Assembly: GCA_016177025.1 (NCBI GenBank)
Contig: JACOWB010000008.1
Coordinates: 78,076 to 119,643 of the forward strand
DNA: 41,568 nt
Direction of reading: 5' to 3'
From: Candidatus Aenigmatarchaeota archaeon
GTDB taxonomy: Archaea > Aenigmatarchaeota > Aenigmatarchaeia > CG10238-14 > SCSR01
Shown here in pieces: positions 12,814-30,332 of the stretch. Position 1 is the stretch's first letter. Each line of letters begins with the position of its first letter. The notes below the pieces were generated by a model that worked only from the letters and a program-made list of their open reading frames with translations, was not told where the DNA came from and did not search any database. The translations under genes and the position numbers were made by a program.

Positions 12814-13342
12814 CCCCTGCTTCGGTTTTTGGTTTCTCTTCTTTTGCTTCAGTGGGATGTTCCTCTATTTTCTCAGTCTCGGCTTTCGGCAGCCCACCAG
12901 CTTTAGGTTTTTCATTCTTTATTTCAGGCTTTTCATCTTTGGTTTCTGCCTTGATATCTTCCTTTTTGCCGAACACGTCTTCCAGCGACTTTTCGCCTTT
13001 TTTAATTACCTTAACATTTATCTGCGCAATATCCTGCGACAGCGTGTTTCCTCTCACCGTCTTCCTCCTTCTTTCACCCTTGAATTTCGGATGGAATCCT
13101 GGCGGTTCTGTCAGTAACGCTCTTTTCCTGCCTTGCCCTTGCACAGAAGGGTGCATCGGGAATCCGTCCTTGTCGCTTCCGCCCGTGATTTTTACGGTAT
13201 ATCCAAGTAATCCGAACAAATCGCCTGCAATTTCGTCGCCTAATTTCTTGCCAATTAGTGAAACACCTTTATCTTGATCTACCTGTGTCTGGTAGGATTT
13301 TCTGGTTTCTCCATCGCTGATGACGATTGTAAAGTTTGCCAT
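12806..13342 (-). CDS. rps6e: 30S ribosomal protein S6e with long Lys/Glu/Pro-rich C-terminal extension
   Basis: 'GDEIAGDLFGLLGYTVKITGGSDKDGFPMHPSVQGQGRKRALL...GERRRKTVRGNTLSQDIAQINVKV'. Confidence 0.95.
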   Translation of the reverse strand: MANFTIVISDGETRKSYQTQVDQDKGVSLIGKKLGDEIAGDLFGLLGYTVKITGGSDKDGFPMHPSVQGQGRKRALLTEPPGFHPKFKGERRRKTVRGNTLSQDIAQINVKVIKKGEKSLEDVFGKKEDIKAETKDEKPEIKNEKPKAGGLPKAETEKIEEHPTEAKEEKPKTEAGGE

Positions 13343-13412
13343 AAGTATCAATATTAATTAAGGTTTTTAAATCCCGCGCCTGCCATAATATTTTAATGCA
13401 GGTTATATAATT

Positions 13413-13682
13413 ATGGTTATGAAAGTACCAAAGAATCTCATCGTACCTATTGTGGCTGGGATAGTTATAGTCGTGGGTGCCGCTATTTTGCTGAGTGGTT
13501 CCGGTAAAAATTTTGGCGCTATTGGTGCATCCAAAGATAGCTGCGACTATAGGTTCTTTGAGTGGTGCAAGGATTACCCTACAGGAGGGGTGGATTACGA
13601 TAATTTTGCTTCTGCCAATAGAGAATGTGTCGCACAGGGGTCGTACAGGACATGCGACCAAGTAAATGATGCGTTGGGTTAA
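13413..13682 (+). CDS. Small membrane-anchored Cys-motif protein (related to 11086-11571)
   Basis: N-terminal TM; SCDYRFFEWC...NRECVAQGSYRTC. Confidence 0.65.
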   Translation: MVMKVPKNLIVPIVAGIVIVVGAAILLSGSGKNFGAIGASKDSCDYRFFEWCKDYPTGGVDYDNFASANRECVAQGSYRTCDQVNDALG

Positions 13683-13805
13683 TGTTTAAATCTTTACGGT
13701 CCTTAAATAAGGGTGAGTGGTATGCTCCAATGGAATGCTCTTCAATAGCTTTTTGCAGATTTTATTTACTTCTATCTCCAAATTACTCTTTAGCAGGTGA
13801 ATCTC

Positions 13806-14897
13806 ATGACTAGGATTACTGTTGATGCAGTAGAAGGGGAAGTGGACTATGACAAAGAAATGCAGAAGTTTGGTATTGAGAAAATTGACGCCTATTTGAA
13901 GCAGATGAACAACTTGGATGTTCTTTATCGAAGAGGGATTGTATTTGGCCAGAGGGATTTTATAAGAATATTTGAAGCGATGAAAAACAAAAAACCATTT
14001 GCGGTTCTTACAGGATTTAACCCGTCTGGCCCTTTGCATATAGGAAACCTGATGATTTTGAAAGAGGCCTTGTTCCTGCAGAAGAACGGTGCTGACGTCT
14101 ACTTTGTAATTTCGAACGATGAGACTTATGTTTTCAGGAAGGCTGATACTCTGGAGAAAGCTACGAAAAATGCGTATGATTACGTGATACCTGATATAAT
14201 AGCGCTAGGGTTCGACCCTAAGAAGACTAGGATATTTGTTTCAACAGAGCTTGCTAAACTCTATGAACTGGCAGTAAAGGTTTCAGCCAAAACCACGTTC
14301 TCTGCAATAAAAGCTATTTTCGGCTTTACAAACGAGACAAACCCCGGCCAGATATTTTATTCGATAATGCAGTCTGCGCATATTCTTTTTCCACAGTCAA
14401 AGGAATACGGCGGACCGAGACCGACAGTCGTCAACATAGGGATCGACCAAGATCCTTACATGCGATTGGTGAGAGATATTGCTGATAAATTGGATTTCAT
14501 CAAGCCATCTTCTACTTACCACAAGTTCATGCCAGGACTGCTTGGGGGAAAGATGTCGGGCAGCAAACCGGAAACGTGCATCTATCTTACCGACAGCCAA
14601 GAAATTGCGGAGAAAAAAATAATGAGAGCGTTCTCTGGAGGCGCAAAAACTTTGGAAGAACATAAAAAATACGGAGGCAATCCTGATGCAGATGTCGCAT
14701 GTCAGTACCTTTATTTCATGTTTGAGGAGGATGACAGAAAAATAAAACAGATCTTTAGTGATTTTAGAAATGGTAAACTCGCTTCTGGAGACGTTAAGAA
14801 ATATCTTGCCGATAAAGTTAAGAAATTCCTGGGTGAACATCAGAAAAGAAGAGAGAAAGCGAAGAATCAAATCGAAAAGTTCATGTTAAGGAATTGA
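13806..14897 (+). CDS. trpS: Tryptophan--tRNA ligase
   Basis: 'GFNPSGPLHIGNLM', 'GIDQDPYMRLVRDIA', 'LLGGKMSGSKPETCIYLTDS'. Confidence 0.95.
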   Translation: MTRITVDAVEGEVDYDKEMQKFGIEKIDAYLKQMNNLDVLYRRGIVFGQRDFIRIFEAMKNKKPFAVLTGFNPSGPLHIGNLMILKEALFLQKNGADVYFVISNDETYVFRKADTLEKATKNAYDYVIPDIIALGFDPKKTRIFVSTELAKLYELAVKVSAKTTFSAIKAIFGFTNETNPGQIFYSIMQSAHILFPQSKEYGGPRPTVVNIGIDQDPYMRLVRDIADKLDFIKPSSTYHKFMPGLLGGKMSGSKPETCIYLTDSQEIAEKKIMRAFSGGAKTLEEHKKYGGNPDADVACQYLYFMFEEDDRKIKQIFSDFRNGKLASGDVKKYLADKVKKFLGEHQKRREKAKNQIEKFMLRN

Positions 14898-14901
14898 TTA
14901 C

Positions 14902-16161
14902 ATGGTTAAAAATTATGAGCTTACTCCTGAAGGTAGGGATTATTTGAAGAACGGTCTTCCTGAAAAACAGCTAGTTGATATTTTGAACAAACAACCAATG
15001 AAATCTCTGCCATTTGACGAAGCTAAGAAAAGCATAAGTAATTTCTACATCGGACTGCAATGGGCATTGAAAAACAAGTGGGCAAAATCGTTTGGGAAAG
15101 ATTTGGTGTTGGCGAAATATCCAGAAAAAATTCCTGAGCAGAAAGCGCTGGAAGAGGTTGATAAAGGTGGCGATGTTGAACAGAAATTAATCGACGTTCT
15201 TCTGCAAAGAAAACTGATTAAAAAGATTGTCACAAGTGAGGCTGACAAACTAGTCGGCAAAGAAGTGACTACTCTGACACCCCAGTTGTTGAAAAGTGGT
15301 TTATGGAAACAGGTCAAATTCCAAAAGTATGATGTGAGCGTTCCTGTATCGAAAGTTTATCCTGGTAAACTGCATCCTTATCGGCAAGTGATAGAAGAAG
15401 TGAAAGAAAAGTTAATCGGACTGGGATTTGTCGAAGCAAAGGGCCCGTTGGTCGAATCTTATTTCTGGAACGATGACGCTTTGTTTATGCCAAGCGACCA
15501 CCCTGCAAGAGGCATACACGATGTTTTCATGGTTAAAGGCGGTCGGCAAGCGAAAGTTTTAGATGAAAATCTCTGGAAGCGGGTCGGAGAAACTCATACA
15601 AATGGTTGGAAAACTGGAAGCAGTGGATGGGGTAATTGGAACTTTGATTTGGCGAGAAAACTAGTTCTTCGCAGCCAGACTACAGCGGTTTCTGCCAGGA
15701 CATTGGTGAAGCTGAAGAAGGAGGATATACCGCACAAGATGTTTGTCATAGACAAGAACTTCAGGCCGGATGTGATTGATGCGAAGCATTTCATTGAATT
15801 CGACCAGTGTGAAGGGATTGTTGCCGGTGAGGGACTTAATTTTAGGCATCTGTTGGGATATCTGAAAGAAATTGCGAACACATTTGGTGCAGAAAAGGTT
15901 AGATTCAAACCATCATACTTCCCATTCACAGAACCATCGGTAGAAGGAGTTGCACTAATCAAAGATATGGGATGGGTTGAATTCGGTGGCGCTGGAATCT
16001 TCAGACCGGAAGTTACTCATCCTCTAGGTGTGGATGTTCCTGTACTCGCATGGGGTCTTGGAATCGGAAGATTAGCAATGATAAAGCTTGGTATCAGTGA
16101 TATACGTTACCTTTACTCCGATAACTTGGATTGGCTGAGAAATAAAGAGGTTGTGAGATAA
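14902..16161 (+). CDS. pheS: Phenylalanine--tRNA ligase subunit alpha
   Basis: Archaeal-type PheRS alpha: 'KVYPGKLHPYRQVIEEVKEKLIGLGFVEAKGPLVESYFWNDDALFMPSDHPARGIHDVF', 'WGLGIGRLAMIKLGISDIRYLYSDNLDWLR'. Confidence 0.97.
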   Translation: MVKNYELTPEGRDYLKNGLPEKQLVDILNKQPMKSLPFDEAKKSISNFYIGLQWALKNKWAKSFGKDLVLAKYPEKIPEQKALEEVDKGGDVEQKLIDVLLQRKLIKKIVTSEADKLVGKEVTTLTPQLLKSGLWKQVKFQKYDVSVPVSKVYPGKLHPYRQVIEEVKEKLIGLGFVEAKGPLVESYFWNDDALFMPSDHPARGIHDVFMVKGGRQAKVLDENLWKRVGETHTNGWKTGSSGWGNWNFDLARKLVLRSQTTAVSARTLVKLKKEDIPHKMFVIDKNFRPDVIDAKHFIEFDQCEGIVAGEGLNFRHLLGYLKEIANTFGAEKVRFKPSYFPFTEPSVEGVALIKDMGWVEFGGAGIFRPEVTHPLGVDVPVLAWGLGIGRLAMIKLGISDIRYLYSDNLDWLRNKEVVR

Positions 16162-17795
16162 TGCCCACAATTACTTATGGCAAGAAAGATTTGTTGAATT
16201 TGATTGGAAAGAAACTTTCCGATGAGCAATTGGAAGAAGTAATACATTCGATGAAAACCAATGTCGAAGAGGAAAACGAAAATGAGATAACAATCGAACT
16301 GACGCCCGACAGACCGGACTTGTTCGGAATCGAAGGTTTGGCACGAGCGATAAAACAATATTTAGGATTGCAGACGGGCTTGAAAAAATTTGCAGTCAAC
16401 AGTCCAAAGTTGCATGTTAAAGCTTCGTATCTTCCTTACAGACCTCATCTTGCTGCTGCAGTTGTTAGAAATGTATCGGTGACGGATGCATTTATCAAAA
16501 GTTTGATGAACATACAGGATATTCTGACGGATACTGTCGGAAGGAAGAGGAAGAAGGTTGCGATCGGCATTCATGATTTCGACAAAATCATACCTAACAT
16601 CAATTACATCGAAGTGGATCCGACTGAAAAGATTGTACCGCTTGATACCAATGAGGAGATGACTCTTGCTGAAATTTTGGATAAGATACCTAAAGGAAAA
16701 GACTATGGCCACATTTTGGCTGGACTGAAAAAGTTTCCTGTATGGACTGATGCCAAAGGTATTTTCAGTTTTCCCCCGATAATCAATTCCGACAGAACGA
16801 GGGTAACGGAAAAAACGAAGAATCTTTTAGTTGAACTCACTGGAATCGACAAGGAGACCGTCCTGCAGACTCTGAACATAATAGTGACGAATTTCGCTGA
16901 ACGTGGATGTTCCATCGAAGCTGTGAAGATATTTCATGGCGATAAATCTGAGGTTACTCCCAACCTTAATCCGACTTTCATGGATGTTGGCACTGACGAG
17001 ATAAACAAATTAATTGGACTGGACTTGAAAAAAAGTGATATAATTGATTCGCTGAACAGAATGGGTTACGATGTTACAGAAAACAAAGGTTTGTTAAGAG
17101 TTTTCATCCCTGCTTACAGAACTGATATTCTGCATGGAGTGGATGTTATAGAAGATGTTGCTATAGGATATGGGTTCAATAATTTTGTTCCACAGCTACC
17201 GCATATAGCCACAGTCGGTAAACTGCATCCTGCTGAAAAACTCTCTGCAAAAGTCAGACAGTTGTTAATTGGATATGGCTTCCAAGAAATTATAAATCCT
17301 GTACTATCAAATTCTACAGATCAGTTTGAAAAAATGAATTGGAAAAAAGAAAATGTAATTGAGATAGAAAATCCTGTGTCACAAGAGTATACCTGCTTAA
17401 GAATATGTCTGAAACCTGGTCTACTGAAGATCCTGGGAAAAAATACCCATGTAAGCTATCCGCAGAATATTTTCGAAGTTGGTGATGTCGTCTGGCCGGA
17501 TGAAAATGAGGAAACTATGTCAAAATCCATTAGGAGCATTGCCGGGTTGATGTGCCATTCAAAGACAAGCTTTACCGATGTGAAATCTTTAGTTGATTCG
17601 TTGCTAAAAAATTTGAATATCGGATATAAATTAGAATCTCATGATTTAGAAGAGATGATATCTGGCAGGTCTGCAAAGATTTTAGCGAATGGTAAATACA
17701 TCGGTAATTTTGGGGAAATAAACCCAACTGTCTTGAATAATTGGGGGATAGAAATACCGTGCTCAGCTTTTGAAATCGATTTGGAGGTATTGTGA
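16161..17795 (+). CDS. pheT: Phenylalanine--tRNA ligase subunit beta
   Basis: '[19 protein letters not shown]', '[25 protein letters not shown]'; overlaps pheS by 1 bp. Confidence 0.96.
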
Positions 17796-23666: not shown

Positions 23667-24128
23667 GTGATTTTAAAATTAATGTGTATGAAATTCAAAT
23701 CTTCGTGGATAGGCTTGTTCCTTATAGCCGTTATGCTGTTTTCAACATTTGCCTATGCTGTCATACAATCTTTATACCCGAAACAGGCGCCTACATTGCC
23801 GGACTCCAACATAATTGATTATGCGCTTGAACCAGCACTGAAAGATGCATTAGTCCAATATGGCGCGACTGTCATCACATTCGAATATAATCTAGGCTGC
23901 AATAACTGCGTGAACCAGAAAGCGACATTGGAATTTTTTGCGACTGACTATAAAGAACAGATCTGGCTGGAAGAGATTCATGATGACAACTTGGATGTAT
24001 CAACCATAAGGATGTCGAGCGTATACGGCGAAGAGAATCTGGTAGATGCCAATGAAACTCAGATTGTAAGTTCTCTGTGTGGGCTGATGGTGGCTCCACC
24101 TGCAACATGCGCCCTTCAAAAAACTTAA
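23667..24128 (+). CDS. Membrane-anchored thioredoxin-like protein with CNNC motif
   Basis: N-terminal TM/signal, then 'ATVITFEYNLGCNNCVNQKATLEFFATDYKEQIWLEEI'. Confidence 0.5.
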   Translation: MILKLMCMKFKSSWIGLFLIAVMLFSTFAYAVIQSLYPKQAPTLPDSNIIDYALEPALKDALVQYGATVITFEYNLGCNNCVNQKATLEFFATDYKEQIWLEEIHDDNLDVSTIRMSSVYGEENLVDANETQIVSSLCGLMVAPPATCALQKT

Positions 24129-24151
24129 GCTAAAAAATCAGAGTAATATTC

Positions 24152-24601
24152 ATGGCATTGCTGGAAATGGCAGACTTTATCAACATCCTTGCTTTTGTGG
24201 GCATGACAACTGCGACTTACACAATTTTCTATATAGGCAGGAGCATGAGCGCCAAGGGAATCGGATTGAACATGTTTACACTCGCCTTGGGGATTAATCT
24301 GATCGGATTGTCGCATTTGTTTAGGGTATGGCTCGATGTGTCAACTTCCCCGCTTATACTGATGCTGGTGGCGACGGGCTCTGTCTTCTTGTCTGCTGGT
24401 ATCATCTGGGTGATTTATGACAAGGCGACGGAAATAAGCAGGCTGAAAGGCAGGGGGAAGGAAATAAACTCCGTAATCGCCGACCTGAAAGAAAGGTACT
24501 ACAAGAAAGAATTGTCTGAGGAAGACCTGCAATCCGCCTATTCAAACCTGATGAGAGAAATGGCTGAGATTGAAGTCAAACTGAAGGAGAAACGTAAATA
24601 G
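24152..24601 (+). CDS. Membrane protein, three or four TM segments plus C-terminal coiled coil
   Basis: Hydrophobic N-terminal two-thirds; charged tail 'DLKERYYKKELSEEDLQSAYSNLMREMAEIEVKLKEK'. Confidence 0.6.
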   Translation: MALLEMADFINILAFVGMTTATYTIFYIGRSMSAKGIGLNMFTLALGINLIGLSHLFRVWLDVSTSPLILMLVATGSVFLSAGIIWVIYDKATEISRLKGRGKEINSVIADLKERYYKKELSEEDLQSAYSNLMREMAEIEVKLKEKRK

Positions 24602-24621: not shown

Positions 24622-25317
24622 ATGCCTGTGGAAAGAACTGAAAGCGGCATTCCTGGATTGGACAAGTTAATTGAAGGCGGTTTTGTAAAGAATTCTGTTA
24701 ATCTTGTTGCGGGGCAGACTGGAACTGGAAAAACTCTGTTCTGCATGCAGTATCTTTTGAATGGCTTGAAGAAAGGGGAGAATGGACTATATATAACTTT
24801 GGAGCAGAAGGAGGATGAGATTCTGCAGGACGTTGGAAGATTTGGTTGGGATGTTGAGTTTCAGAAATATATCAAAGCGGGAAAACTTGCGCTTGTTCCT
24901 TTAGAGCCTACAGGGATGAGGGAACTGACAACTGCGACAGTCAATTACGCAAAAAAAGTAAACGCCAAAAGATTTGTTCTTGATAGCTTGTCGATAGCAA
25001 CAATGGGCTGGAAAACAGGGGAGATGGACTTGACAAAAATCAGGGCTGAGGTTTTCTCTTATATGAAATCATTAAAAAATTTAGGTGTAACTAGTTTTTT
25101 AATAACAGAAATACCAGAAACAGATGACAAAGCTTTGAGCAGATTCGGATTCGAGGAGTTTCTAGCAGATGGTGTTGTAGTTTTATCATTTTTGAATGTC
25201 GGTGGAGAAGTGTTTTCCAATCTAAGGGTAAGAAAAATGAGAAGAACTAGCCATAAAAAAGAACAATATCCATATGAAATAACAAACAATGGTTTAAAGC
25301 TGCTTTCAAAGGGTTAG
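24622..25317 (+). CDS. KaiC-like single-domain RecA-superfamily ATPase
   Basis: 'GIPGLDKLIEGGFVKNSVNLVAGQTGTGKTLFCMQYLLNGLKKGENGLYITLEQ'. Confidence 0.92.
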   Translation: MPVERTESGIPGLDKLIEGGFVKNSVNLVAGQTGTGKTLFCMQYLLNGLKKGENGLYITLEQKEDEILQDVGRFGWDVEFQKYIKAGKLALVPLEPTGMRELTTATVNYAKKVNAKRFVLDSLSIATMGWKTGEMDLTKIRAEVFSYMKSLKNLGVTSFLITEIPETDDKALSRFGFEEFLADGVVVLSFLNVGGEVFSNLRVRKMRRTSHKKEQYPYEITNNGLKLLSKG

Positions 25318-26535
25318 AGAATCGCTAAAAGTAACACCGACGAGTGTTTGACAAAAACTACCACATGTTCCGCTAGGCAACGTTGATTGCTCCGAATAAC
25401 TATAAAATCCGACAAAGGGTGTGTTTTTCAATTCTTTCTTTAATATTTCAGCCTCTTTATAAATGTCTTTTTGTAAATATGCCATCCTCCCAGCACAACT
25501 AATTATTATGGAGAATGCAGGTGTTATTTTATCCAATAATTTGCCAGTCCTATCCGTAGCTTTGAGTATGTCATTTTGACTACCTTCAAGCAAATAAAGC
25601 ACACTGTTTTTAGGCACTGGGGAAAAGAATAAAAGTGACTTATCGGGCAGTACTGCCTGCGGGTTTTTGATCCAGAAATTCCCCATATTGTCAGAAAATC
25701 CGAAAGGATATTTAGCAATATATGGTACAATGTTCTCTTTTAGTTTATCTAGGGTGGTGCCGACTAGTTTGGCGTAAACTTCTGCAGCTGGCTTGTTGTC
25801 CAGTGTTTTCACTATTTTACCTTCGCTTTCTGTAGCGACGGCTACTCTTCTTGTTGGCTTGTATCCATGATCGACTGAATGAACATTTCTTAGTTTAGAG
25901 AATAAAGCCATGACTATTGTTGCATCTTTGTAGATTTTCCCATTTACAAACTGGTATGTTTGTTCGAACTGCACATCGTCCCCAGCTGAGCCACCGGCTA
26001 TAAAAGTATTTTTACTGAGAATCTCTAGCATTCCTGCCAACGTCTCTTCTTCATGGCCGAGTACTTTCTTTGTGGTGCCGGGAAATATAGTTAAAGCATA
26101 TGTAGGGTTTACAAATTTCTGCTCCTTGCGTAAAGCTTTTCTCAGATTTTCGGTGGCTTCTTTTGCCGATGCTTTTCCAGCCAATCTAGGATTCTTTGAG
26201 ACATTATCACCGACCCCTATTCCTGTAGAAATATAATCGGAAGACACAGCCAAAGCTACACAACTGCCTGTAGAAAATCCATAATTAGAAAGTTCGCCTG
26301 CAGTTGTGCAACCTATCCAATTGCACTTGAATAAATCATTTATTTTTTTAACAAGTTCTTTCAAAGATTTTTCGTTTCGCGCATATTTTTTGGCAGAGCA
26401 GAAAACTACACCAAAAGTAGGTGTTTTATTTCCAGATTTTTGCATCTCTTTTATCGCTGTTTTAACGGCTTCTTCCGCGGCTTTAGAAGGATTGTCTAGT
26501 TGGCTTGTTCCCACGCCAGCAGAGACATTTCTCAT
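25306..26535 (-). CDS. FIST N + FIST C sensory domain protein
   Basis: 'CNWIGCTTAGELSNYGF...SVALAVSSDYISTGIGVG', 'FIAGGSAGDDVQFEQTYQFVNGKIYKDATIVMALFS', C-terminal 'FVGFYSYSEQSTLP'. Confidence 0.85.
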   Translation of the reverse strand: MRNVSAGVGTSQLDNPSKAAEEAVKTAIKEMQKSGNKTPTFGVVFCSAKKYARNEKSLKELVKKINDLFKCNWIGCTTAGELSNYGFSTGSCVALAVSSDYISTGIGVGDNVSKNPRLAGKASAKEATENLRKALRKEQKFVNPTYALTIFPGTTKKVLGHEEETLAGMLEILSKNTFIAGGSAGDDVQFEQTYQFVNGKIYKDATIVMALFSKLRNVHSVDHGYKPTRRVAVATESEGKIVKTLDNKPAAEVYAKLVGTTLDKLKENIVPYIAKYPFGFSDNMGNFWIKNPQAVLPDKSLLFFSPVPKNSVLYLLEGSQNDILKATDRTGKLLDKITPAFSIIISCAGRMAYLQKDIYKEAEILKKELKNTPFVGFYSYSEQSTLPSGTCGSFCQTLVGVTFSDSLTL

Positions 26536-26564
26536 ATTTATTATTCAGTTTGATAAATATATCT

Positions 26565-27683
26565 CTATTTGAGTGCCGTTTTCATCCTATCCAACGCATT
26601 GGATAGCTCTCCCATGGAAACTGTAGAATATGTTAGTCGTACGTAGTCCCCACCGGCAGGACCAAAGATAATCCCAGGTGCGACAAGTACTCCATTCTGC
26701 TTGAATAGACTGGCAACTTGTTCGGATGATCCGTACTTGTTTATTCTAGAAAATACATAAAACGCGCCTCTTGGTGTACTGGATGGTACTCCCATTTCTC
26801 TCAAACCTTCCAACAGAAAGTTTCTTCTTCTTTGATACTCATCGATTACCTGTGGTAATCTGTCATTGCCCCTCTGAATAGCCTCTAATGCAGCATACTG
26901 ATTCATTGAAGGCGGGCATGTGACCATTGCTTGATGGACTTTCAACATTTCTCTTAATATATCAGGATTTGCAACTGCCCACCCTATTCTCCATCCTGTC
27001 ATGTCATGTTCCTTTGATACACCGTCCACCACTATTGCTGTATCTAAATATTTTCCGATTGAATGGTGAACATGATTATCATAAACAAATCTTCTGTATA
27101 TTTCATCGGAGACAACAACTATGTCATTGGCTTTAGCAATCTCCGCTATTCCTTCTATATCTTCTTTTGTCGCAACACTTCCTGTGGGATTGTGTGGGGA
27201 ATTGAGAATGATGATTCTTGTTTTGGGTGTTACCAATTTTTCTACATTCTCAGGCTTCATTCTGAAATCGTCTTCCATATTAAGAAGCGTGTAGACAGGA
27301 GTTGCACCTGCTATTAAAATCTGGTTTCTATATAAAGGAAAGCTGGGGTCAGATAAAATAACCTCGTCGCCTGTACCGGCAAAAGCCAAGATAGATGCCA
27401 TGATGGCTTCTGTTGCGCCAACAGAAATCATAACATTGTTTTTTGTATATTGCAATCCCAAGCCGCCATACGTTCTTGCAACAGCTTCTCTCAATTCTGG
27501 TATACCTTCGGATGGTGTATATTTTGTACGATTATCTTGTACAGCTTCAACACCTTTTGCTTTCACAGAATCTGCAGTCCCGAAATCTGGTTGTCCGAGA
27601 GCTAGATTAATAGCACCTGGAGGTGGATCTCTAAATAATTCACCAATTAAAAAATTGTCTATACTCGCCAAACGTCTCCTCAT
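26565..27683 (-). CDS. Class I/II PLP-dependent aminotransferase
   Basis: 'INLALGQPDFGTADSVKAKG', 'NSPHNPTGSV', 'VSDEIYRRFVYD', PLP Lys 'VDGVSKEHDMTGWRIGW'. Confidence 0.94.
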   Translation of the reverse strand: MRRRLASIDNFLIGELFRDPPPGAINLALGQPDFGTADSVKAKGVEAVQDNRTKYTPSEGIPELREAVARTYGGLGLQYTKNNVMISVGATEAIMASILAFAGTGDEVILSDPSFPLYRNQILIAGATPVYTLLNMEDDFRMKPENVEKLVTPKTRIIILNSPHNPTGSVATKEDIEGIAEIAKANDIVVVSDEIYRRFVYDNHVHHSIGKYLDTAIVVDGVSKEHDMTGWRIGWAVANPDILREMLKVHQAMVTCPPSMNQYAALEAIQRGNDRLPQVIDEYQRRRNFLLEGLREMGVPSSTPRGAFYVFSRINKYGSSEQVASLFKQNGVLVAPGIIFGPAGGDYVRLTYSTVSMGELSNALDRMKTALK

Positions 27684-27706
27684 CGATTATAAATAAGAGC
27701 TTAAAA

Positions 27707-29146
27707 TTAAGAGCTTATAGAAATTGGGTTTGTCCATATTTCAAATGGATACTTTCCTTGGTGAGGCAAGGCCAAATCGTGTACTCTTGTGTTCTTACCT
27801 ACATTGACATGTGAAGCTGGAAGTCTACGAGCTAACTCTAGGGTATGTTCCTTGCCTTTTTTGTCTTCTGGACCATAATATGAGACTGTGAGAGGGTGTG
27901 GCAACCAAGGTGAACTAATCTCTTGAACAGCTCTGTCTAAACTATCAAAGTGTCTCACATGAAGCATGTAGACGTTACGATCTCCCCGAACAAGGGGGGA
28001 TTCCAAGTTATACAGCCGTAAAATAATTGGTAGACCCTGATATTCCCCTACTCTAATTTTTGGTATATCTACCTCGGGGTAGAGAAGCTTTTCTGATCCC
28101 CATCTCGCATTATCGGTAACTAAATTCAGTGTTTTTTGCAAATCATTGAAGTCGACAAAACCTATATCTGTGTCATGCTCTAAAGGATCACCCACTTTCC
28201 TTTTAGCAAACTCTTCTTTCAAAGCTTCTTCAAATTCTCTTGCTACGCTACTGTGTACCCATACTAATCTTGTAGCGTCGCATGCTAATGGATTTTCTAG
28301 TGCGCCGTCTGCTACGGATTTGGCCGATTGTTTTATATCTGCACCCTCATCTACAATTGCTTTGCAGCTACCTCTATCATAAGCTATACCGACACCGAGC
28401 GCCTTTAGTGTGGCTGAATTTCCAAATCCCAGTCTTGACTCTGGGGTGGTCTCTAGATTTATCATTTCGGAGTTAGTTTGCCTCGATTGGTCATCACTTT
28501 TCCATATTACGGTATTAATGCCTCCCGATAAATCACCTCCCATCTTTCTTGCGACTTCTGTTAGCTGTTCGGCAAGTTTTACCGAGAAATAAGCCATGCT
28601 CGAGCTAGGTCTGACCAGAACATCTCTTCCAGAAATAAGTGAATGTGATATCACAAAAATAGGCGGAAATAAATCGCCGAATGGCAAATAACCCACCACG
28701 CTATCATCTATAGGAACTCTTAATTCTACTGACCCGTTTGTCAGATGTCTTTGCACTCCATTCTCACCTACAGTATACCTTTGTCTTATGATATTCCCAA
28801 AATGTTTCATGTAATCTCTTATCCCCATTAAGTTTGCTCTAACTACTTTTGTAGGCAAGCCGGTTAATTTAACCGCGTAAGCAATCTCGCTTTCTTCTAT
28901 CGGAAGTGACTCACCTGCAGAACTGATAACATCTAAAAGAGTCGAAGGGTCTATTTTTCTTCTTCTATAATTTTTTCCATGGCCGAGTGCACTTTCTATT
29001 TCTCTTGTTGTGGAGTTTGGTAGCTCAACTGAAAATCTGTATGGTTCTGAATAAGTGCTAAATGGGCTAGTCATAACAAATCTTGATTCTGTGTCTGATC
29101 TCCTTCCGCCTATATAATTTTGTACTGCTATGCTTGGACTAGTCAT
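27707..29146 (-). CDS. LuxC-like acyl-CoA/acyl-protein reductase (ALDH superfamily)
   Basis: 'SGRDVLVRPSSSMAYFSVKLAEQL' and Cys-containing 'LENPLACDATRLVWVHSSVAREFEEALKEEF', resembling LuxC. ATG at 29146; in-frame TTG at 29158 also possible. Confidence 0.7.
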   Translation of the reverse strand: MTSPSIAVQNYIGGRRSDTESRFVMTSPFSTYSEPYRFSVELPNSTTREIESALGHGKNYRRRKIDPSTLLDVISSAGESLPIEESEIAYAVKLTGLPTKVVRANLMGIRDYMKHFGNIIRQRYTVGENGVQRHLTNGSVELRVPIDDSVVGYLPFGDLFPPIFVISHSLISGRDVLVRPSSSMAYFSVKLAEQLTEVARKMGGDLSGGINTVIWKSDDQSRQTNSEMINLETTPESRLGFGNSATLKALGVGIAYDRGSCKAIVDEGADIKQSAKSVADGALENPLACDATRLVWVHSSVAREFEEALKEEFAKRKVGDPLEHDTDIGFVDFNDLQKTLNLVTDNARWGSEKLLYPEVDIPKIRVGEYQGLPIILRLYNLESPLVRGDRNVYMLHVRHFDSLDRAVQEISSPWLPHPLTVSYYGPEDKKGKEHTLELARRLPASHVNVGKNTRVHDLALPHQGKYPFEIWTNPISISS

Positions 29147-30332
29147 ATCTGCAACCAACCCCTGCGATTTCTTCTGGATCTAATCTTCTTATATTACCGA
29201 TAACGGGCGTAGTTCTTCCACAAGAGCAGTTGTCTGTTATTATAGTTGCCATATCTCCCGTTTTGTACAGAATAAGAGGTGTCCCGTATCTTAATCCAAT
29301 AGTGTAAACCTCACCCTCCTCACCAGGAGTAAATATTGGTGCTACTCTATCACCTTGGTCTCTTCCGAGAAATACGTAGTGCGGTCCAAATGTCAGATGC
29401 TGTTGATTATATTTACACACTCTCCCAGCATCCCCATTAACAGGCGAATATGCTAAAGGTCTGTGCTCCGCTGTCCCGTATCCACCAGAACCTTTGATTC
29501 CGTGCAGTTCTCCTTCTATTCGTTCGATTAGCTCGGATGTTATTCCAGATCCTATTAAAAACAATTTATTTATTCCATGTCCTCCGAAAACATCCATAGA
29601 CTCGTCCAACAATGTTTTAAGATTGGTTCCTTTTCTGCCTAATGGGTCCCCTGTAGAGGACGGAACTGCCAACAAGACTGTAAATGGCGATCTTCCATTA
29701 TACCATTCACGTAGCTCTCTTGCCGTATCCTCAACTGAAAACTCTGGAGGTTTGAATCGGTGGGAAGCCCCGACTATTCTACAAACTCCTGGGAACATAA
29801 AACCACCGGGATGAGCAGGATTATAACAGTCATATACATTATCTTCTGGGGATATTCCCAACGAATCCCATATTCTGGCCACAGCATAATTTTCGATATC
29901 AAAATCCCAAGGCTCAGCATAATGGACAGGTATTTGAGTCATACCAGTGGATCCCGTAGTGGTCCATACAGAGGTACCCTTAACATCAACCGGCTTTAGA
30001 ACTTCTTTGGATTCCCTAATCGCCTCTCTTAATCCATTAGAATGCAGTGTTGACTCTTTTCTTAAAACCGGAAGGTTCATGATATCTTCCATACTAGCTA
30101 ATCTAGAGACGTCTACTCCTTTATATAATTCGGCGTAGAATGGAATTTTTTCCTTAGCTCTTTTGACTAGGAGGGAGTACACAATGCCTAATAATTCATC
30201 TCTTTCAGAAGGTCTCATGAAATCCCATTCTGGATCTCTGAAGATCATCGGCTCTATAGAACGCAAATCAGAACTTCTATTCAGTCTTCTTAATTCATTC
30301 GGACCTTTTACTGTACGGTTAACTGAGAACAT
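29139..30332 (-). CDS. PaaK/LuxE-like adenylate-forming enzyme (ANL superfamily)
   Basis: P-loop-like 'SVWTTTGSTGMTQIPVHY', 'GGYGTAEHRPLAYS', 'YKTGDMATIITDNCSCGRTTPVIGNIRRLD'; overlaps the LuxC-like gene. Confidence 0.78.
   Translation of the reverse strand: MFSVNRTVKGPNELRRLNRSSDLRSIEPMIFRDPEWDFMRPSERDELLGIVYSLLVKRAKEKIPFYAELYKGVDVSRLASMEDIMNLPVLRKESTLHSNGLREAIRESKEVLKPVDVKGTSVWTTTGSTGMTQIPVHYAEPWDFDIENYAVARIWDSLGISPEDNVYDCYNPAHPGGFMFPGVCRIVGASHRFKPPEFSVEDTARELREWYNGRSPFTVLLAVPSSTGDPLGRKGTNLKTLLDESMDVFGGHGINKLFLIGSGITSELIERIEGELHGIKGSGGYGTAEHRPLAYSPVNGDAGRVCKYNQQHLTFGPHYVFLGRDQGDRVAPIFTPGEEGEVYTIGLRYGTPLILYKTGDMATIITDNCSCGRTTPVIGNIRRLDPEEIAGVGCRYD

What the first reader, a model, noticed from the sequence alone, without database searches (positions are those of the whole stretch)
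25306..30332. Compact LuxE-like / LuxC-like / aminotransferase / FIST gene cluster: possible acid-to-amine pathway with a sensor
Seen directly: four minus-strand genes, transcribed from 30332 down to 25306, with an overlap or 23-29 bp gaps between them. Family knowledge: PaaK/LuxE-type enzymes activate carboxylates, LuxC-type ALDH-superfamily enzymes reduce acyl thioesters to aldehydes, PLP aminotransferases can convert aldehydes to amines, and FIST domains are proposed small-ligand sensors. Inference: the first three enzymes form a carboxylate to aldehyde to amine (or aldehyde-lipid) route, with FIST as the sensory or regulatory partner. Bioluminescence genes luxA/B are absent, so this is not a lux operon. 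I know of no described archaeal system with this composition, but I could not search.
Basis: partly seen in the sequence, partly recalled or inferred. Interest (0 to 1): 0.72.

Follow-up and report, generated by a model that had tools for sequence, protein, structure and literature searches.

The report
Archaeal aldehyde-making operon with FIST receptor
A small archaeal gene cluster appears to turn an acid into a reactive aldehyde with two Lux-type enzymes, and its partner, a FIST-domain protein of long-unknown function, carries the same two residues that let a human FIST protein capture aldehydes, so FIST domains may be nature's aldehyde sensors.

Summary
The four genes are real at the stated coordinates, and a fifth (KaiC, 24622-25317) converges on them. 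The first two enzymes are a divergent LuxE (adenylation core, no CoA-ligation domain, Cys on a short C-terminal tail) and a LuxC-like acyl-thioester reductase (catalytic Cys kept, general-base Glu lost). Together they should convert acid to acyl-AMP, acyl-S-Cys and aldehyde.

It is FIST + LuxE + LuxC/ALDH-type reductase, usually with KaiC. A LuxE-type gene adjoins FIST at 13 of 17 FIST loci in that phylum, and the unit recurs in four genomes of two other archaeal phyla. The aminotransferase is an optional add-on.

Across 25 prokaryotic FIST proteins only two residues are invariant, Cys347 and Glu382 (window numbering). They align with Cys326 and Glu362 of human FBXO22, whose FIST domain captures aldehydes as a hemithioacetal. 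Seven of ten plasmid FIST genes examined lie beside alcohol, aldehyde or formaldehyde genes.

Best explanation: LuxE-LuxC make an aldehyde that FIST captures covalently and signals, perhaps through KaiC. The chemistry is well supported; aldehyde sensing is a strong but untested inference.

The parts
29139..30332 (-). LuxE-type acyl-protein synthetase (ANL core; tail Cys394 in ..GVGCRYD)
   Evidence: Ends 14 aa after the ANL hinge where 20 of 21 PaaK relatives have 87-109 more residues; tail Cys conserved in 6/6 relatives and aligned with the tail Cys of authentic LuxE; profile match to PF04443-positive LuxEs, prob 96.7, E 4.5e-10
27707..29146 (-). LuxC-like acyl-thioester reductase of the ALDH superfamily; catalytic Cys289
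   Evidence: Pfam Aldedh 9e-11, LuxC 3e-5; Cys289 conserved, general-base Glu absent in 6/6 module proteins but present in 19/19 ALDHs of the phylum; authentic LuxC also lacks that Glu
26565..27683 (-). Class-I PLP aminotransferase; accessory, not part of the conserved core
   Evidence: Aminotran_1_2 3e-66; PDB 1gd9 E 8e-77 with PLP Lys224, Asp193 and carboxylate-binding Arg349 conserved
25306..26535 (-). Stand-alone FIST/FIST_C protein; proposed covalent aldehyde receptor (Cys347, Glu382)
   Evidence: Pfam FIST 5e-35, FIST_C 1e-26; Cys347 and Glu382 are the only invariant residues in 25 FISTs; align with FBXO22 Cys326 and Glu362
24622..25317 (+). Single-domain KaiC ATPase, convergent with and overlapping the FIST 3' end by 12 bp; proposed output hub
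   Evidence: Pfam KaiC 2e-55; same placement in G065; KaiC near the module in G195, G166, G452, G457, G043, G094, G145, G152, G082, G129

Best explanation
A self-contained aldehyde-signal module. (1) The LuxE-type enzyme adenylates a carboxylic acid with ATP. Having no CoA-ligation domain, it passes the acyl group to a cysteine on its own C-terminal tail (Cys394) (inferred from architecture). (2) The acyl group moves to Cys289 of the LuxC-like protein and is reduced with NAD(P)H to a free aldehyde (inferred from family and active site). (3) The aldehyde is captured reversibly as a hemithioacetal by Cys347 of the FIST protein, with Glu382 tuning the cysteine (inferred from the aligned, experimentally shown FBXO22 Cys326/Glu362 pair). 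(4) The loaded FIST protein changes the state of the neighbouring KaiC ATPase (and, in other archaea, V4R and HTH proteins), setting a cellular response (inferred from gene neighbourhood only). (5) In this genome an aminotransferase supplies the acid precursor or converts the aldehyde to an amine, modulating the signal (weak inference). The substrate acid is unknown.
For: Synteny: a LuxE-type gene is next to FIST at 13 of 17 FIST loci in Aenigmatarchaeota and in 4 of 4 loci found in two other archaeal phyla, mostly followed by a LuxC/ALDH-type gene; gaps measured at nine loci are -19 to +50 bp. LuxE architecture and tail Cys. LuxC Cys kept and hydrolytic Glu lost. LuxE Cys364 and LuxC Cys286 are the known acyl sites (PMC8301110). 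LuxE and LuxC distances correlate, Mantel r 0.79, p 2e-4. FIST: only Cys347 and Glu382 are invariant in 25 proteins and align with FBXO22 Cys326 and Glu362, which bind aldehydes covalently in the isolated FIST domain (PMC13316043; PMC11208438). 7 of 10 plasmid FISTs sit by PQQ alcohol dehydrogenase, formaldehyde or aldehyde dehydrogenase genes, as do Pseudomonas homologues in the ped cluster (PMC12997753).
Against: The only biochemically proposed ligands of prokaryotic FIST proteins that I found are heme/NO (NosP) and heme (CdpA). The profile match to FBXO22 is modest (E 0.0015). The Cys/Glu pair is kept even in FISTs with no LuxE nearby (L147), so it marks the FIST family, not this operon. 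FIST distances do not track LuxE or LuxC distances (Mantel r 0.11 and 0.14, not significant). The window LuxC-like protein has Gly where ALDHs have the oxyanion-hole Asn. Structure predictions failed (pLDDT 36 and 35). The plasmid FIST sample is small and mostly alphaproteobacterial.
Confidence: 0.55

Rival explanations
1. One reading: a biosynthetic acid to aldehyde to amine route, with the aminotransferase as the third step and FIST as a regulator of the amine product.
For: The four genes are co-directional with an 8-bp overlap and 23-29 bp gaps and are conserved as a block in G065 at 55-72% identity; an aminotransferase also sits between LuxE and LuxC in G457.
Against: The aminotransferase is absent from the other LuxE-bearing loci read; it is of the aspartate/aromatic class-I type with the alpha-carboxylate Arg kept, whereas terminal aldehydes are usually aminated by class-III enzymes (own knowledge).
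Confidence: 0.2
2. FIST is a catalytic or carrier partner of the reductase (as LuxD is in the lux system): its Cys347/Glu382 pair accepts or releases the acyl group of LuxE or hydrolyses a precursor, rather than sensing the aldehyde.
For: FIST is a constant operon partner of LuxE-LuxC in most of the loci read in Aenigmatarchaeota and has no fused output domain; an invariant Cys/Glu pair could serve catalysis.
Against: Plasmid-borne FISTs mostly pair with histidine kinases and response regulators, not with LuxE/LuxC, which fits sensing; KaiC, V4R and HTH genes surround the archaeal modules.
Confidence: 0.15
3. FIST is a NosP-type heme/NO sensor and the LuxE-LuxC pair is an unrelated metabolic unit under its control.
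For: The window FIST matches the NosP model at E 4.6e-39, though at 135 bits against a cut-off of 450; NosP is reported to bind heme and NO.
Against: Below the NosP equivalog cut-off; the NosP gene itself has its homologue in the PQQ alcohol-oxidation (ped) cluster; the tight and repeated LuxE-LuxC linkage in archaea is unexplained by NO sensing.
Confidence: 0.1

Closest known systems
LuxCDE fatty-acid reductase complex of bacterial bioluminescence
   Same: LuxE-type adenylating enzyme with C-terminal tail Cys plus LuxC-type reductase; a LuxE/LuxC aldehyde route
   Different: No luciferase (luxA/B) or LuxD; the window LuxE is below the PF04443 threshold and the LuxC barely above its own; FIST and KaiC are present instead
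FBXO22 FIST domain (human E3 ligase)
   Same: Cys326 and Glu362 aligned with the invariant Cys347 and Glu382; covalent, reversible aldehyde capture shown experimentally
   Different: Stand-alone archaeal protein, no F-box; the natural aldehyde of FBXO22 is unknown, and the aldehydes used there are synthetic degraders
NosP-NahK/NosK FIST-kinase systems
   Same: Stand-alone FIST protein next to a signalling partner; same invariant Cys/Glu in the plasmid FISTs examined, many with NahK/ErcS-like kinases beside alcohol-oxidation genes
   Different: Partner is a histidine kinase rather than KaiC; reported ligand is NO/heme; no LuxE-LuxC
KaiC-centred archaeal signalling (Makarova, Galperin and Koonin 2017, cited in PMC5847659)
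   Same: Single-domain KaiC next to small-molecule sensor proteins (FIST, V4R)
   Different: The 2017 paper itself is not held in the library, so whether it lists this LuxE/LuxC association could not be checked

Membership tests
LuxE acyl-protein synthetase (PF04443) | Match to the PF04443 model | tested here: not met
   No PF04443 hit for the window protein or its three first relatives at E<=1; eight genomes of the phylum have true PF04443 members, five of them FIST-linked
LuxE acyl-protein synthetase (PF04443) | ANL adenylation core without C-terminal CoA-ligation domain, ending in a tail with an acyl-accepting Cys | tested here: met
   14-15 residues after the hinge..GC tail in 6/6; aligned to authentic LuxE tail ..KGCALSLTEAFDS; hhalign to PF04443 members prob 96.7. 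Acylation itself not tested
LuxC acyl-CoA reductase (PF05893) | ALDH fold with acylatable Cys, no hydrolytic Glu, adjacent to LuxE | tested here: met
   LuxC HMM 23.6 bits over cut-off 21; Cys289 kept, Glu replaced by Asp; 8-bp overlap with LuxE. Aldedh scores higher than LuxC, so it is a divergent member at best
Bioluminescence lux operon | luxA/luxB luciferase genes | tested here: not met
   No luciferase among the Pfam-searched neighbours of the cluster
FIST domain protein | FIST + FIST_C over curated cut-offs | tested here: met
   121.5 and 93.9 bits against 23.2 and 28.5
Aldehyde-binding FIST (FBXO22 type) | Cys326 and Glu362 equivalents | tested here: met
   Aligned with FBXO22 chain in PDB; invariant in 25 proteins
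Aldehyde-binding FIST (FBXO22 type) | Covalent adduct with aldehyde | not testable with these tools
   Needs intact mass spectrometry or thermal shift
NosP | NCBIfam NF041558 equivalog cut-off of 450 bits | tested here: not met
   134.6 bits
Class-I aminotransferase (aspartate/aromatic type) | PLP Lys, Asp, NPTG motif and carboxylate-binding Arg | tested here: met
   Alignment to 1gd9 and to G065
Aldehyde-accepting (amine) aminotransferase | Activity on the LuxC product | not testable with these tools
   Sequence keeps alpha-amino-acid features; no clade assignment obtained

The most novel reading that the evidence does not exclude
The FIST domain is a general aldehyde-sensing domain across all life. 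Archaeal modules make their own aldehyde messenger with LuxE-LuxC and read it with FIST and KaiC; bacterial FIST-kinase pairs (including NosP, now called an NO sensor) read aldehydes from PQQ alcohol and formaldehyde oxidation; and FBXO22's aldehyde-reactive Cys326 is the retained ancestral ligand site.
Probability: 0.33. Interest if true: 0.92.

Novelty: new variant of a known kind. Interest (0 to 1): 0.8.

Why it matters
FIST domains were proposed as small-molecule sensors nearly two decades ago (own knowledge), and their ligand is still unsettled. The operon link to aldehyde-making enzymes in archaea, to alcohol/aldehyde oxidation genes in bacteria, and the invariant Cys/Glu pair shared with the aldehyde-capturing site of FBXO22 give one simple, testable answer. 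If right, it reveals an aldehyde-based signalling system in reduced-genome archaea, offers a new reading of NosP proteins, and suggests why FBXO22 has an aldehyde-reactive cysteine that drug developers now exploit while its native role is unknown.

Tried and rejected
Single-sequence search of the FIST protein against the PDB gave nothing; the 15-sequence profile was needed. Virus contigs hold no relative. Plasmid searches with the window or G195 LuxE-like protein gave only distant PaaK-type hits. The genome-contig scan used two narrow peptide patterns and found only the known Aenigmatarchaeota contig, so the module may be more widespread than counted. Aminotransferase trees were inconclusive because few reference rows were recovered. 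FIST-LuxE co-evolution (Mantel) was not significant. Considered and rejected: a lux bioluminescence operon (no luxA/B), hydrolytic aldehyde dehydrogenase (no general-base Glu), acyl-CoA ligase (no C-terminal domain). The full text of Makarova et al. 2017 on KaiC hubs is not held.

Full report
OBSERVATION. All four ORFs exist at the stated coordinates and spacing. Pfam gives FIST/FIST_C, class-I aminotransferase, and ALDH/LuxC; the first gene has no Pfam family and only weak PaaK-type NCBIfam matches. The surroundings are mostly housekeeping genes: aminoacyl-tRNA synthetases, H+-pyrophosphatase, eIF2-gamma, a HIT protein, TctA.

CONSERVATION OF THE BLOCK. Only one other of 156 genomes of the phylum has a close copy of the LuxC-like protein (G065, 56% identity). 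There the arrangement is the same, KaiC> <FIST-aminotransferase-LuxC-LuxE. Pairwise identities are FIST 72%, LuxE 61%, aminotransferase 60%, LuxC 55%, KaiC 46%. A sample of 392 relatives and two further phyla gave four more archaea (G195, G166, G452, G457). In each, FIST, LuxE-like and LuxC-like genes lie together with KaiC, a V4R protein and a conserved 146-160-aa protein. An aminotransferase is present in only one of these four (G457, opposite strand between LuxE and LuxC). G452 has a membrane protein with UbiA-like motifs there instead.

WIDER LINK. A search of 155 Aenigmatarchaeota genomes for FIST_C found 16 genomes with 17 loci. I read those loci and tested neighbours against Pfam. A LuxE-type gene adjoins FIST at 13 of 17 loci: G000, G065, G141 twice, G043, G019, G144, G149, G152, G145, G082, G028 and G129. 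Five of these genomes (G043, G028, G141, G129, G082) match PF04443 above cut-off in the genome search; the others rest on AMP-binding matches, partial PF04443 matches or similarity to those genes. A 14th (G029) has a 418-aa gene without a family match followed by an ALDH-type gene. A LuxC/ALDH-type reductase follows at 13 loci (PF05893 up to E 2e-91; two of these by similarity search only). G053 and G097 have neither. Conversely, 5 of the 8 genomes with PF04443 above cut-off have it beside FIST. With roughly a thousand genes per genome, such adjacency is far beyond chance.

THE LUXE-LIKE PROTEIN. Against 21 PaaK-type relatives, all six module proteins keep the adenylation core. They end 14-15 residues after the hinge, where 20 of the 21 continue for 87-109 residues (the domain that normally makes the CoA thioester). 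All six end in a ..G-C-(C/R)-x-x tail. In an alignment with an authentic lux-cassette LuxE (L161) and other LuxE-type proteins, the tail Cys falls in the same region; 18 of 19 rows have one. In LuxE this Cys (364 in Photobacterium) carries the acyl group, and LuxC Cys286 receives it (PMC8301110). Profile-profile comparison with PF04443 members gives probability 96.7, E 4.5e-10 over 321 columns including the tail. I call it LuxE-type, not a PF04443 member, because the HMM test failed.

THE LUXC-LIKE PROTEIN. The catalytic Cys (289) is kept in 6/6. The general-base Glu of hydrolytic aldehyde dehydrogenases is present in 19/19 reference ALDHs of the phylum and absent in 6/6 (Asp, Asp, Ala, Gly, Ser, Thr). 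An authentic LuxC also lacks it. This points to reduction of an acyl-thioester rather than aldehyde oxidation. LuxE and LuxC distances over 15 loci correlate strongly (Mantel r 0.79, p 2e-4).

THE FIST PROTEIN. In 15 archaeal FISTs six columns are invariant. Adding ten plasmid FISTs leaves two, Cys347 and Glu382. A profile of the 15 finds human FBXO22 in the PDB (E 0.0015); counting along chain 29hg_A (403 aa, aligned 283-366), Cys347 falls on Cys326 and Glu382 on Glu362 (residues counted by hand). In FBXO22, Cys326 forms a hemithioacetal with aldehydes, the isolated FIST domain suffices, C326A abolishes complex formation, and E362A abolishes activity (PMC13316043). Intact mass spectrometry shows the Cys326 adduct independently (PMC11208438). 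The authors say native substrates engaging Cys326 may exist but are undiscovered. A full-text search for 'FIST domain' with 'aldehyde' returned only that paper, so I found no published link between prokaryotic FIST and aldehydes in the held library.

PLASMID CONTEXT. I read ten annotated plasmid FIST loci (nine bacterial, one haloarchaeal) taken down the ranking. Seven adjoin PQQ methanol/ethanol dehydrogenase (Sinorhizobium, two Paracoccus, Sulfitobacter, Pseudosulfitobacter), S-(hydroxymethyl)glutathione synthase (Paroceanicella) or aldehyde dehydrogenase (Sphingobium). Three do not (Aliiroseovarius, Roseomonas, Salinirubellus). Pseudomonas FIST homologues (PP_2663; PA1975 NosP) belong to the ped alcohol-oxidation cluster (PMC12997753). 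These lineages are not independent samples, so this is supporting rather than decisive.

MECHANISM. Shown from sequence: module composition and order, LuxE tail Cys, missing CoA domain, LuxC Cys without general base, FIST Cys/Glu correspondence with FBXO22. Inferred: acid to acyl-AMP to acyl-S-LuxE to acyl-S-LuxC to aldehyde; aldehyde capture by FIST; relay to KaiC. Not known: the acid, the output, and the aminotransferase's role. The last keeps the PLP Lys, Asp and carboxylate Arg of aspartate/aromatic aminotransferases and is the least constant element of the block across genomes.

CAVEATS. Published ligands for prokaryotic FIST proteins are NO/heme. The Cys/Glu pair is family-wide, not specific to this operon. 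FIST distances do not track those of LuxE. No usable structure model was obtained. Genome sets are samples, mostly MAGs.

Noticed in passing
L073:7069-7509, L074:6714-7175, L085:7818-8261, L086:5772-6254, L153:3630-4136: A conserved 146-168-aa protein with no Pfam or PHROGs match where searched, found in the FIST-LuxE-LuxC modules that also carry a V4R protein; possibly a further signalling component.
   Followed up: partly
L073:13094-13939; L085:6812-7660, 14664-15521, 15532-16410; L086:4540-5376, 12961-13830, 13827-14687; L033:16535-17389: A family of ~280-aa HTH-like proteins without a Pfam match (one member searched) flanks the modules, up to three copies per locus; likely transcription factors of the module.
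   Followed up: no
L085:10779-11741: A polytopic membrane protein with UbiA-like Asp motifs (no Pfam hit) sits between LuxE and LuxC in G452, hinting at a lipid-type substrate there.
   Followed up: no
Plasmid records, e.g. L167, L169, L171, L172, L174: FIST-kinase-response regulator genes repeatedly adjoin PQQ alcohol dehydrogenases; the NosP 'NO sensor' label may deserve re-testing against aldehydes.
   Followed up: partly
L162 (Priestia megaterium plasmid): A LuxE acyl-protein synthetase in a cluster with an acyl-AMP ligase, carrier protein, cysteine desulfurase and Fe-S scaffold, without annotated LuxC or FIST nearby.
   Followed up: no
window 23667-24601: Two small ORFs (153 and 149 aa) directly upstream of the KaiC gene on the same strand, with no convincing family; the second looks membrane-anchored. 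Not present at the G065 locus.
   Followed up: no
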